Assembly (NCBI RefSeq): GCF_025854375.1
Contig: NZ_CP107575.1
Coordinates: 1,178,001-1,242,000, forward strand
Source: Glutamicibacter sp. JL.03c
Lineage (GTDB): Bacteria > Actinomycetota > Actinomycetes > Actinomycetales > Micrococcaceae
Length of the DNA stretch: 64,000 bases
Direction of reading: 5' to 3'
Shown: positions 1-3,562 of the stretch, in pieces
How positions within the stretch are numbered: the stretch's first letter is position 1
Layout of the letters: each line of letters opens with the position of its first letter
The notes under the pieces: model-generated
Told to the model about the DNA's origin: nothing
What the model saw: only the letters and a program-made list of their open reading frames with translations
Database searches by the model: none
Translations under genes and position numbers: made by a program

Positions 1-378
1 TCTTTCGGGGTTGTTGTGGTGTTGGAAAAGCGGTGGTGGTGTTGTGTGGTTTGTATGGTTTGGCATGCTGTTGGGTTTTGAGGCAACAAGCCTCCAGGCC
101 GCGGTGATGGCCCCTTTTTTGTGGGGGTTGTTGTTGTGGTGTGGGGTTCTTGGTGTTTCGGTGTTTGTCCTGTGTTTGCCGTGGTCGTGCTGCCTTTGCC
201 GGTGGTGTGGTTGCGGGGGTGCGGGGTTGTTGTTTGGGAACTGTATAGTGAACGCGAGCATCTTGCGGATGAGATGAGTCGGGTGGCCCTTTTCCTGGGG
301 TTGCCTGGTGTTTGAGTCTTGTCTGCGTGATTTTGTTAGATTGTTTTATTGCTCATACTTTTGAGACTTTGATGTTGT
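1..378 (+). other. 16S-23S spacer (3' part) of an rRNA operon
   Basis: This stretch precedes the 23S gene and is GT-rich, with no tRNA inside, as is usual for actinobacterial 16S-23S spacers. It holds a small hairpin (80-84 with 90-94) and the left arms of two inverted repeats that continue after the 23S gene. Short open frames here have no ribosome-binding site and biased composition, so I do not call genes. The 16S gene must lie to the left of the window. Confidence 0.75.
245..351 (+). other. left arms of the pre-23S processing stem
   Basis: Positions 340-351 are perfectly complementary to 3512-3523, and 245-256 to 3551-3562 (12 bp each). The two pairings are nested around the whole 23S gene. 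That is the arrangement of the long helix cut by RNase III during rRNA maturation. The complementarity is seen directly; the RNase III role is inferred from other bacteria. Confidence 0.65.
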
Positions 379-3300
379 GTTGAAGTTTTTAAGGGCGCAC
401 GGTGGATGCCTTGGCATCAAGAGCCGATGAAGGACGTGGGAATCTGCGATAAGCCTGGTGGAGTCGATAACCGGACGTTGAGGCCAGGATTTCCGAATGG
501 GGGAACCCCGCACCATGTTATGTGGTGTGACCTGCAGCTGAATGTATAGGCTGTGTGGAGGGAACGCGGGGAAGTGAAACATCTCAGTACCCGCAGGAAG
601 AGAAAACAATAGTGATTCCGTTAGTAGTGGCGAGCGAACGCGGATGGGGCTAAACCGGTTGGTGTGTGATAGCGGATAGGCGTTGCATCATCGGGGTTGT
701 GGGGTTGACATGTGCCAGTGCTATCTTGCTGGCGGGATGAGGTGCAGGCGTATAGGTGAATCGGTTGGAATGCCGGACCATAGAGGGTGATAGTCCCGTA
801 GGTGTAATGCGTGTCTGCCGTTCTAGTGTTGATACCCGAGTAGCACGGGGCCCGTGAAACCTTGTGTGAATCTGCCAGGACCACCTGGTAAGCCTGAATA
901 CTACTTGATGACCGATAGTGAATCAGTACCGTGAGGGAATGGTGAAAAGTACCCCGGGAGGGGAGTGAAATAGTACCTGAAACCGTGCGCTTACAATCCG
1001 TCAGGGCCTGGGACTTGTTCCTGGGTGATGGCGTGCCTTTTGAAGAATGAGCCTGCGAGTTAGTGCTGTGTCGCGAGGTTAACCCGTGTGGGGTAGCCGT
1101 AGCGAAAGCGAGTCTGAATAGGGCGTTTGAGTGGCACGGTCTAGACCCGAAGCGAAGTGATCTACCCATGGCCAGGTTGAAGCGCGTGTAAGAGCGTGTG
1201 GAGGACCGAACCCACTTCAGTTGAAAATGGAGGGGATGAGCTGTGGGTAGGGGTGAAAGGCCAATCAAACTTCGTGATAGCTGGTTCTCCCCGAAATGCA
1301 TTTAGGTGCAGCGTTACGTGTTTCTTGCTGGAGGTAGAGCTACTGGATAGGCGATGGGCCCTACAAGGTTACTGACCTTAGCCAAACTCCGAATGCCGGT
1401 AAGTGAGAGCGTAGCAGTGAGACTGTGGGGGATAAGCTTCATAGTCGAGAGGGAAACAGCCCAGAACGCCAACTAAGGCCCCTAAGCGTGTGCTAAGTGG
1501 GAAAGGATGTGGAGTTGCTGTGACAACCAGGAGGTTGGCTTAGAAGCAGCCACCCTTGAAAGAGTGCGTAATAGCTCACTGGTCAAGTGATTCCGCGCCG
1601 ATAATGTAGCGGGGCTCAAGCACACCGCCGAAGTTGCGTCATTCAAATTTTTGCCCGGTTTCGATTGGGTGTTTGGATGGGTAGGGGAGCGTCGTATAGC
1701 GGGTGAAGTCGCGGTGGAAACCAGCGGTGGACGCTATACGAGTGAGAATGCAGGCATGAGTAGCGAATGACGGGTGGGAAACCCGTCCGCCGAATGATCA
1801 AGGGTTCCAGGGTTAAGCTAATCTGCCCTGGGTTAGTCGGGGCCTAAGGCGAGGCCGACAGGCGTAGTCGATGGATAACGGGTTGATATTCCCGTACCGG
1901 CGAAGGACCGCCCATACTGAGCTGTGGATGCTAACCATGACGGATCCGGTGATGTGTTCCTTCGGGAATGGTTGCTGGTGGTGTGGTGGGAACCGATGCA
2001 GTGAGGTCAGCGTATTAACAGGTGTGACGCAGGAAGGTAGCCGAGCCAGGCAATGGAATTGACCTGGTCCAAGGGTGTAGGAAGAGTGGTTGGCAAATCC
2101 GCCGCTCATATGTTCTGAGACCTGATAGGCGCCCGCTTTGGCGGGTGATTCGGTGATCCTATGCTGCCTAGAAAAGCATCGGCGCGAGGTCCCAGTCCGC
2201 CCGTACCCCAAACCGACACAGGTGATCAGGTAGAGAATACTAAGGCGATCGAGAGAATCATGGTTAAGGAACTCGGCAAAATGCCCCCGTAACTTCGGAA
2301 GAAGGGGGGCCTGCCTCGTGATGAGAACTTGCTTCTTTGAGCGGGTGTGGGCCGCAGAGACCAGGGGGAAGCGACTGTTTACTAAAAACACAGGTCCGTG
2401 CGAAGTCGCAAGACGATGTATACGGACTGACTCCTGCCCGGTGCTGGAAGGTTAAGAGGACTGGTTAGCCCTTGTGGCGAAGCTGAGAATTTAAGCCCCA
2501 GTAAACGGCGGTGGTAACTATAACCATCCTAAGGTAGCGAAATTCCTTGTCGGGTAAGTTCCGACCTGCACGAATGGAGTAACGACTTCCCCGCTGTCTC
2601 AACCATGAACTCGGCGAAATTGCAGTACGAGTAAAGATGCTCGTTACGCGCAGCAGGACGGAAAGACCCCGAGACCTTTACTATAGTTTGGTATTGGTGT
2701 TCGGTGCAGCTTGTGTAGGATAGGTGGGAGACTGTGAAGCTTGGACGCTAGTTCAGGTGGAGTCATCGTTGAAATACCACTCTGGCTGTACCGGTCACCT
2801 AACTTCGGACCATGATCTGGTTCAGGGACAGTGCCTGATGGGTAGTTTAACTGGGGCGGTTGCCTCCTAAAATGTAACGGAGGCGCCCAAAGGTTCCCTC
2901 AGCCTGGTTGGCAATCAGGTGTCGAGTGTAAGTGCACAAGGGAGCTTGACTGTGAGAGTGACAGCTCGAGCAGGGACGAAAGTCGGGACTAGTGATCCGG
3001 CGGCACCTCGTGGAAGGGCCGTCGCTCAACGGATAAAAGGTACCTCGGGGATAACAGGCTGATCTTGCCCAAGAGTCCATATCGACGGCATGGTTTGGCA
3101 CCTCGATGTCGGCTCGTCGCATCCTGGGGCTGGAGTAGGTCCCAAGGGTTGGGCTGTTCGCCCATTAAAGCGGTACGCGAGCTGGGTTTAGAACGTCGTG
3201 AGACAGTTCGGTCCCTATCCGCTGCGCGCGTTGGAAATTTGAGAAGGGCTGTCCTTAGTACGAGAGGACCGGGACGGACTAACCTCTGGTGTGTCAGTTG

Positions 3301-3508
3301 TACTGCCAAGTGCATCGCTGATTAGCTACGTTGGGAAGGGATAACCGCTGAAAGCATCTAAGCGGGAAGCCTGCTTCGAGATGAGATTTCCATGCACCTT
3401 GTGTGTGTGAGGCCCCCAGCTAGACCACTGGGTTGATAGGCAGGATGTGGAAGCAAGGACTGAAGACTTGTGTAGCTGACCTGTACTAATAGGCCGATGA
3501 CTTTCAAC
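379..3508 (+). rRNA. rrl: 23S ribosomal RNA
   Basis: Large-subunit rRNA. Recognisable conserved blocks run in order: the 5' ggtggatgcc region near 401, the peptidyl-transferase region with the ggacggaaagacc core near 2656, the cctcgatgtcggctc block near 3101, and the sarcin-ricin loop agtacgagaggacc near 3257. The 5' end was placed by aligning ggtggatgcc with E. coli numbering, and the 3' end by the complementary gttga/tcaac closing helix. Both ends may be off by a few bases. It appears complete. Confidence 0.95.
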
Positions 3509-3511
3509 ACA

Positions 3512-3562
3512 CAATAAAACAATATTTTACTAGCAATTATTATTGCTGTTCGCGTTCACTAT
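3512..3562 (+). other. right arms of the pre-23S processing stem
   Basis: Positions 3512-3523 pair with 340-351 and 3551-3562 pair with 245-256. The remaining 23S-5S spacer up to 3682 shows no tRNA or open frame of note. Confidence 0.65.

What the first reader, a model, noticed from the sequence alone, without database searches (positions are those of the whole stretch)
245..3562. Two nested complementary arm pairs around 23S rRNA
Both pairs are perfect 12-mers, 340-351/3512-3523 and 245-256/3551-3562, separated by more than 3 kb. They mark the precursor helix and let the processing sites be predicted.
Basis: partly seen in the sequence, partly recalled or inferred. Interest (0 to 1): 0.22.

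Follow-up and report, generated by a model that had tools for sequence, protein, structure and literature searches.

The report
Precursor-23S rRNA leader-trailer helix
The matching sequences on either side of this ribosomal RNA gene are the two halves of the usual RNA stem that bacteria fold and cut to free the large ribosomal RNA, and the outer half also resembles the signal that keeps RNA polymerase going; this is an ordinary feature.

Summary
Confirmed, and ordinary. Both perfect 12-mers are at the stated places around a 23S gene at 379-3510. Each is part of a longer pairing. The outer one pairs 218-260 with 3547-3589 (43 nt, 79%; 20 uninterrupted pairs at 240-259). In 56 distinct rows from the family, 89.9% of its core cells pair and 13 of 35 core pairs show changes on both sides. 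It is the pre-23S leader-trailer helix, the expected RNase III substrate; cuts in such helices are reported for another actinobacterium (PMC3848588, passages). The inner 12-mer lies just outside mature helix H1; its 5' arm is nearly confined to the genus (18 of 19 genus loci, 1 of 57 others), with modest covariation support. A refinement: the outer 5' strand is a boxA/boxC-like antitermination element, the same module as in the 16S leader, and the trailer pairs through it. That this pairing ends antitermination is an untested idea. Missing spacers in three operons of one G. creatinolyticus genome look like assembly artefacts.

The parts
218..260 (+).
   Evidence: 43-nt inverted repeat, 79%; 89.9% of cells paired over 226-260 in 56 family rows
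3547..3589 (+).
228..242 (+). boxA-like element TGTTGTTTGGGAACT inside the leader strand (the name boxA rests on recall and on papers, not on a family search)
   Evidence: same module as in the 16S leader of the operon
237..248 (+). boxC-like segment GGAACTGTATAG; overlaps the boxA-like element (name from recall and papers)
   Evidence: resembles AGAACTCAATAG of the 16S leader
264..327 (+). Local hairpin in the leader, predicted
   Evidence: minimum-energy fold of the joined flanks: 264-275/316-327 and 279-290/297-308
340..351 (+). 5' arm of the inner helix
   Evidence: perfect 12-mer; in the minimum-energy fold; 18 of 19 genus loci, 1 of 57 other family loci with at most 1 mismatch
3512..3523 (+). 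3' arm of the inner helix, starting 2 nt after the Rfam 3' end of 23S
352..365 (+). Small hairpin (4 pairs) between inner helix and H1, predicted
376..387 (+). 5' strand of 23S helix H1 (name from recall and PMC10250234)
   Evidence: pairs with 3499-3511 in the fold
3499..3511 (+). 3' strand of 23S helix H1
379..3510 (+). 23S rRNA gene
   Evidence: Rfam RF02541, 2740 bits, full model
57..91 (+). Trailer strand of the 16S leader-trailer helix (end of the preceding gene's precursor stem)
   Evidence: 57-79 pairs with the 16S leader over 23 pairs, 8 of them G-U; 81-91 pairs over 11 (placed in the window by eye)
3685..3801 (+). 5S rRNA gene
   Evidence: Rfam RF00001, 102 bits

Best explanation
The arms are strands of the precursor-23S leader-trailer helix of a Glutamicibacter rrn operon. 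The leader strand (218-260) is made first; when the trailer (3547-3589) emerges the two pair and close 23S into a loop. RNase III is expected to cut within the 20-bp tract 240-259/3548-3567 and free pre-23S. The inner 12-bp helix and H1 then hold the ends together until other nucleases trim to the mature ends near 379 and 3510. Shown here: the sequences, their conservation and covariation, the predicted order of helices, and genes for RNase III, NusA and NusB in the genome. Inferred: folding in the cell, the cut by RNase III, the order of trimming.
For: Rfam boundaries; run length beyond 300 of 300 shuffles; identical arms in six operons; covariation: 56 family rows, 13 of 35 pairs with changes on both sides against 3-6 when the partner is slid and at most 9 in 200 shuffles; duplex energy native -62.1, swapped -57.6, shuffled -22.8; 18 of 21 usable loci from the wider class and phylum have a run of at least 13 pairs beside 23S (the same 18: score 17.8 against 8.7 shuffled); RNase III gene over cut-off; staggered cuts in complementary flanks of 16S and 23S in P. 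acnes (PMC3848588, passages); general description of such helices (PMC10250234, introduction).
Against: No RNA data for this organism. Two of 77 parsed loci lack the trailer (L038, L053) and a further operon of that genome lacks both strands (L135); I judge these artefacts but cannot prove it. Arms were located by similarity to the window's arms, so loci with very different arms would not be counted. Native pairing energy was better than the row's swapped mean in 42 of 56 rows, not in all.
Confidence: 0.9

Rival explanations
1. The inner 12-mer (340-351/3512-3523) is a chance match in an A/T-rich flank without a role; only the outer helix is real.
For: 2 of 300 shuffles gave a run of 12; in 12 genus genomes only 4 pair over 12-13 bp without a gap (two with identical arms), 3 are weak, and native energy (-8.8) is close to swapped (-7.7); the 5' arm is rare outside the genus (1 of 57).
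Against: It sits directly on H1 and is in the minimum-energy fold; ATTG/CAAT is replaced by ATAG/CTGT in L036 and L047 and L037 has GTTTTGTTG/CAACAAAAC, which keep the pairing; H1 plus extension pairs better in native than in swapped combinations across the family (69 loci, -27.3 against -22.5, 58 of 69 rows).
Confidence: 0.3
2. The outer leader strand is conserved only because it is the antitermination element (boxA/boxC-like); its complementarity to the trailer is incidental or serves antitermination rather than processing.
For: The 5' strand is more conserved than the 3' strand (0.17 against 0.62 bits over 226-260); the module recurs in the 16S leader.
Against: Changes on both sides in 13 of 35 pairs need selection on pairing; pairing extends beyond the element to 249-256, where 8 of 8 pairs are at 95-100%.
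Confidence: 0.05
3. Chance complementarity for both pairs.
For: 12-mer pairs occur in 6 of 15 stretches of the window.
Against: Nested position around 23S, 0 of 300 shuffles with a run of 13, family covariation.
Confidence: 0.01

Closest known systems
Leader-trailer helix of E. coli pre-23S rRNA (about 27 bp, RNase III substrate; PMC10250234, introduction and discussion)
   Same: Complementary strands on both sides of 23S, continuing from H1; the expected RNase III site.
   Different: Here the pairing is in three pieces (H1, inner 12 bp, outer about 35-40 bp) with a hairpin and a long leader insert between them. In a fold of E. coli rrnB the boxA lies outside the helix; a duplex-only count did not exclude its pairing.
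Complementary regions with staggered cleavages around 16S and 23S in Propionibacterium acnes (PMC3848588, passages)
   Same: Same phylum, same place, mapped 5' ends assigned to RNase III by the authors.
   Different: Experimental there, prediction here; their figure with the sequences is not held, so the stems were not compared base by base.
boxA/boxC antitermination elements of rrn leaders and spacers in E. coli and M. tuberculosis (PMC6614801 and PMC5676007, passages)
   Same: A boxA followed by boxC upstream of 16S and 23S; boxC described as part of the 16S processing duplex; M. tuberculosis boxes described as sequestered and opened by NusA.
   Different: Here the 23S trailer pairs through the boxA-like part as well (228-235 paired in 75-100% of 56 rows), which I did not find described in the ten paper searches made.

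Membership tests
Bacterial pre-23S leader-trailer (RNase III processing) helix | Complementary strands immediately flanking mature 23S | tested here: met
Bacterial pre-23S leader-trailer (RNase III processing) helix | Pairing conserved by covariation among relatives | tested here: met
   Outer helix. Inner helix: modest only
Bacterial pre-23S leader-trailer (RNase III processing) helix | Present in the rrn operons of the genome | tested here: met
   six of six operons
Bacterial pre-23S leader-trailer (RNase III processing) helix | Genome encodes RNase III | tested here: met
   TIGR02191, 219 bits, over cut-off
Bacterial pre-23S leader-trailer (RNase III processing) helix | RNase III cuts within the helix | not testable with these tools
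   needs RNA end mapping
rrn antitermination element (boxA/boxC) | boxA/boxC-like module upstream of 16S and of 23S | tested here: met
   By pattern: 16S leader 20 of 21 operons, 16S-23S spacer 17 of 21; which bases count as boxA and boxC is recalled
rrn antitermination element (boxA/boxC) | Genome encodes NusB and NusA | tested here: met
   TIGR01951 111.5 bits and TIGR01953 316.1 bits, both over cut-off; the NusA match covers profile positions 96-337 of 340
rrn antitermination element (boxA/boxC) | Binding of NusB-S10 and NusA, relief of termination | not testable with these tools
   needs binding or transcription assays
rrn antitermination element (boxA/boxC) | boxB hairpin upstream of boxA | not tested
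   not examined

The most novel reading that the evidence does not exclude
In this family, and perhaps in Actinomycetes at large, the 23S trailer carries an anti-boxA: closing the helix not only makes the RNase III site but strips the antitermination factors off the spacer boxA/boxC, so antitermination is switched off as 23S is completed, just before 5S and the end of the operon. For: in-register pairing of the boxA 5' part is 0.92 in 40 family rows (shuffled 0.49), and falls to 0.54 when family and class partners are mixed; predicted unpaired probability of 228-236 falls from 0.77 to 0.11 when the trailer is added. Against: partners swapped within the family still pair at 0.88; in 10 class rows the part pairs at 0.62 native, 0.51 swapped, 0.43 shuffled; a gapped duplex count did not discriminate (9.9 native, 9.7 swapped, 9.6 shuffled of 12). 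No protein or transcription data.
Probability: 0.2. Interest if true: 0.45.

Novelty: new member of a known kind. Interest (0 to 1): 0.2.

Why it matters
It gives a covariation-backed map of the precursor-23S stem for Glutamicibacter and its family, and shows that antitermination-like signal and processing strand are one stretch of RNA there. That would let the 'delivery' idea, in which antitermination factors hold the leader for the trailer, be tested on 23S in a non-pathogenic actinobacterium. In itself such a helix is expected in any rrn operon.

Tried and rejected
Natural loss of the stem. Genome G003 (its contig length equals that of NZ_CP034412.1, Glutamicibacter creatinolyticus) has two operons with the leader strand but no trailer strand (L038, L053), one with neither (L135) and one complete (L037). 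I first took this for a natural experiment. L135 joins 16S almost directly to 23S and 23S almost directly to 5S, and each copy has a different deletion, so I read them as gap-filling artefacts; raw reads were not available. A pattern for short 23S-5S spacers matched 1 of 149 family genomes, G003 itself; the pattern needs one 5S start sequence and many of the 149 are drafts, so this is a weak survey. L037 was left out of the covariation count.

Gapped duplex counts of boxA pairing in 18 class and phylum loci looked strong (7-12 of 12), but the control (17 of those loci plus the window) gave 9.9 native, 9.7 swapped and 9.6 shuffled, so that count was dropped and replaced by in-register pairing.

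Covariation inside the genome: not possible, since the six copies have identical arms.

Class and phylum sample: 39 loci went into; 18 gave no 23S 5' hit, several being contig ends. Of the 21 usable, 18 had a run of at least 13 pairs; L126 (too little upstream), L129 (a palindrome) and L134 (misplaced) were set aside. Shuffled control for the 18: 8 of 90 shuffles had a run of 13 or more; score 17.8 native, 8.7 shuffled, shuffled maximum 12.9.

16S leader helix control: 20 operons, score 16.2 native (lowest 14.5), shuffled mean 8.5, maximum 12.0.

A plasmid search with the leader and 23S start returned 410 records, none covering 80% of the query; I did not pursue it. A terminator scan found 1 site after 23S against 1.3 expected. 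Ten paper searches listed no paper whose title or abstract start describes a 23S anti-boxA; only open-licence papers are held and I opened six, so it may be in print.

Full report
WHAT IS THERE. The window begins inside the 16S-23S spacer of an rrn operon. Rfam places 23S at 379-3510 and 5S at 3685-3801. The core of the outer arm occurs once on each side of each of six rrn operons. The six 16S-23S spacers are identical; the 23S-5S spacer of one copy (L011) differs at a few bases outside the arms. The genus is Glutamicibacter by inference: G003 and G005, listed as same genus, have contig lengths equal to those of NZ_CP034412.1 (G. creatinolyticus) and JANCMB010000001.1 (Glutamicibacter sp. PS), and 15 of 19 named stretches that hold a 20-mer of the outer arm are labelled Glutamicibacter (9) or Arthrobacter (6); the rest are Acaricomes (2) and Kribbella (2).

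THE OBSERVATION. Both 12-mers are exact. The outer is part of a 43-nt pairing, 218-260 with 3547-3589, 79% complementary. Folding the joined flanks gives, from outside in: 218-221, 223-235 and 240-259 paired with 3548-3589; local pairing at 260-331; 340-351 with 3512-3523; a small hairpin at 352-365; and H1, 376-387 with 3499-3511. Against 300 dinucleotide shuffles of the flanks the observed run of 13 was not reached and 12 was reached twice.

CONSERVATION OF THE OUTER HELIX. I took 23S flanks from the genus (20 regions) and the rest of the family (60 regions). With the window's operon, 77 loci could be parsed (L043, L044, L063 and L104 were cut off). Both arms were placed by similarity in 68. 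Of the other nine, four still show the pairing (L046, L075, L085, L107; in L085 and L107 with a gap), three are cut off or masked (L060, L106, L111), and two are the G003 copies without a trailer (L038, L053). Leaving out L037 and duplicates, 56 distinct rows remain. Over 226-260, 89.9% of cells pair, against 32.9-46.6% when the partner is slid by 1-3. Thirteen of 35 pairs show changes on both sides, against 3-6 in the slid versions and a mean of 6.2 (maximum 9) in 200 column shuffles. Shuffles do not keep relatedness, so the slid control is the fairer one. Examples: 243-3564 is G-C in 37 rows and A-T in 19; 251-3556 is G-C in 45, A-T in 10 and G-T in 1. Energy of the paired strands: native -62.1, swapped between rows -57.6, shuffled -22.8; 42 of 56 rows beat their own swapped mean.

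WIDER. Of 39 class and phylum loci, 21 could be used and 18 of these have a run of at least 13 pairs beside 23S; in the same 18 the score is 17.8 against 8.7 for shuffled flanks, of which 8 of 90 also had a run of 13 or more. Ten of the 21 have the exact core GTGGACGCG / CGCGTCCAC. This fits the general account that leader-trailer helices flank each rRNA and are cut by RNase III (PMC10250234, introduction) and the staggered cuts mapped around 16S and 23S in P. acnes (PMC3848588, passages).

THE INNER HELIX. Its 3' arm starts two nucleotides after the Rfam 3' end of 23S. Its 5' arm is found with at most one mismatch in 18 of 19 genus loci and in 1 of 57 loci of other genera. In 12 genus genomes the 5' arm has few forms and the 3' arm varies; 4 of 12 pair over 12-13 bp without a gap (two of them with identical arms), 3 of 12 are weak, and native energy (-8.8) is only a little better than swapped (-7.7). 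Two changes on both sides keep the pairing (ATAG/CTGT in L036 and L047; GTTTTGTTG/CAACAAAAC in L037, a locus of the suspect genome). H1 plus its extension as a whole is supported in the family: 69 loci, -27.3 native, -22.5 swapped, 58 of 69 rows below their own swapped mean. I take the inner helix as the genus's form of that extension, at about 0.7.

THE LEADER STRAND RESEMBLES THE ANTITERMINATION ELEMENT. The 16S leader of the same operon has TGTTGTTTGAGAACTCAATAGTG and the 23S leader strand has TGTTGTTTGGGAACTGTATAGTG. In 21 operons (5 of the genus, 14 of other genera of the family, L174 from another family of the order, L175 from another family of the class) the motif was found by pattern before 16S in 20 and in the 16S-23S spacer in 17; in the 20 the leader strand pairs with the spacer over 16-23 pairs, G-U counted (score 16.2 against 8.5 for shuffled spacers). 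The names boxA and boxC rest on recall and on papers: boxC lies inside the 16S helix in E. coli (PMC10250234, passages); for M. tuberculosis the boxes are described as sequestered, with NusA opening them, and boxC as part of the 16S processing duplex (PMC6614801, passages). The 5' strand is more conserved than the 3' strand (0.17 against 0.62 bits over 226-260), as expected if proteins read it. Predicted unpaired probability of 228-236 is 0.77 in the leader alone and 0.11 with the trailer. In E. coli rrnB the fold leaves boxA outside the leader-trailer helix, though a duplex-only calculation pairs 7 of its 12 bases.

HOW IT LIKELY WORKS. Shown: sequences, conservation, covariation, genes for RNase III, NusB and NusA. 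Inferred: antitermination factors hold the leader strand near the polymerase; the trailer pairs with it on emerging; RNase III cuts the 20-bp tract; the inner helix and H1 are trimmed later. Whether closing the helix also ends antitermination is the open and most novel part. Evidence for pairing through boxA is good in the family (0.92 native, 0.49 shuffled) though swapped family partners pair nearly as well (0.88), and mixed in the class (0.62 native, 0.51 swapped, 0.43 shuffled in 10 rows); the first count used for it failed its control.

VERDICT. A real and expected feature: strongly supported for the outer pair, modestly for the inner. New only as an instance of a known kind.

Noticed in passing
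4192-6126: Gene after the rRNA operon codes for a 644-aa protein whose first half is a long array of near-repeats (units of 63 bp and multiples, 4306-5135); Pfam reports only RDM3_C, probably by composition. Its reverse strand is open over 320 codons for the same reason.
   Followed up: partly
L038, L053, L135 (G003, length of NZ_CP034412.1): Three of the four rrn operons fetched from this G. creatinolyticus genome lack the 23S-5S spacer wholly or in part, and L135 also lacks the 16S-23S spacer; probably assembly gap filling.
   Followed up: partly
57-91: The trailer strand of the 16S leader-trailer helix is at the very start of the window and pairs with the boxA/boxC-like part of the 16S leader.
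   Followed up: yes
3821-3855: Inverted repeat of 16 nt (94%, 3-nt loop) just after 5S, a possible operon end, but the terminator scan did not report it (no T run).
   Followed up: partly
G000:C1:2061624-2061992: A second, weaker NusB-like match (52 bits, below cut-off) inside a 556-aa open frame, perhaps an RNA methyltransferase with a NusB domain.
   Followed up: no
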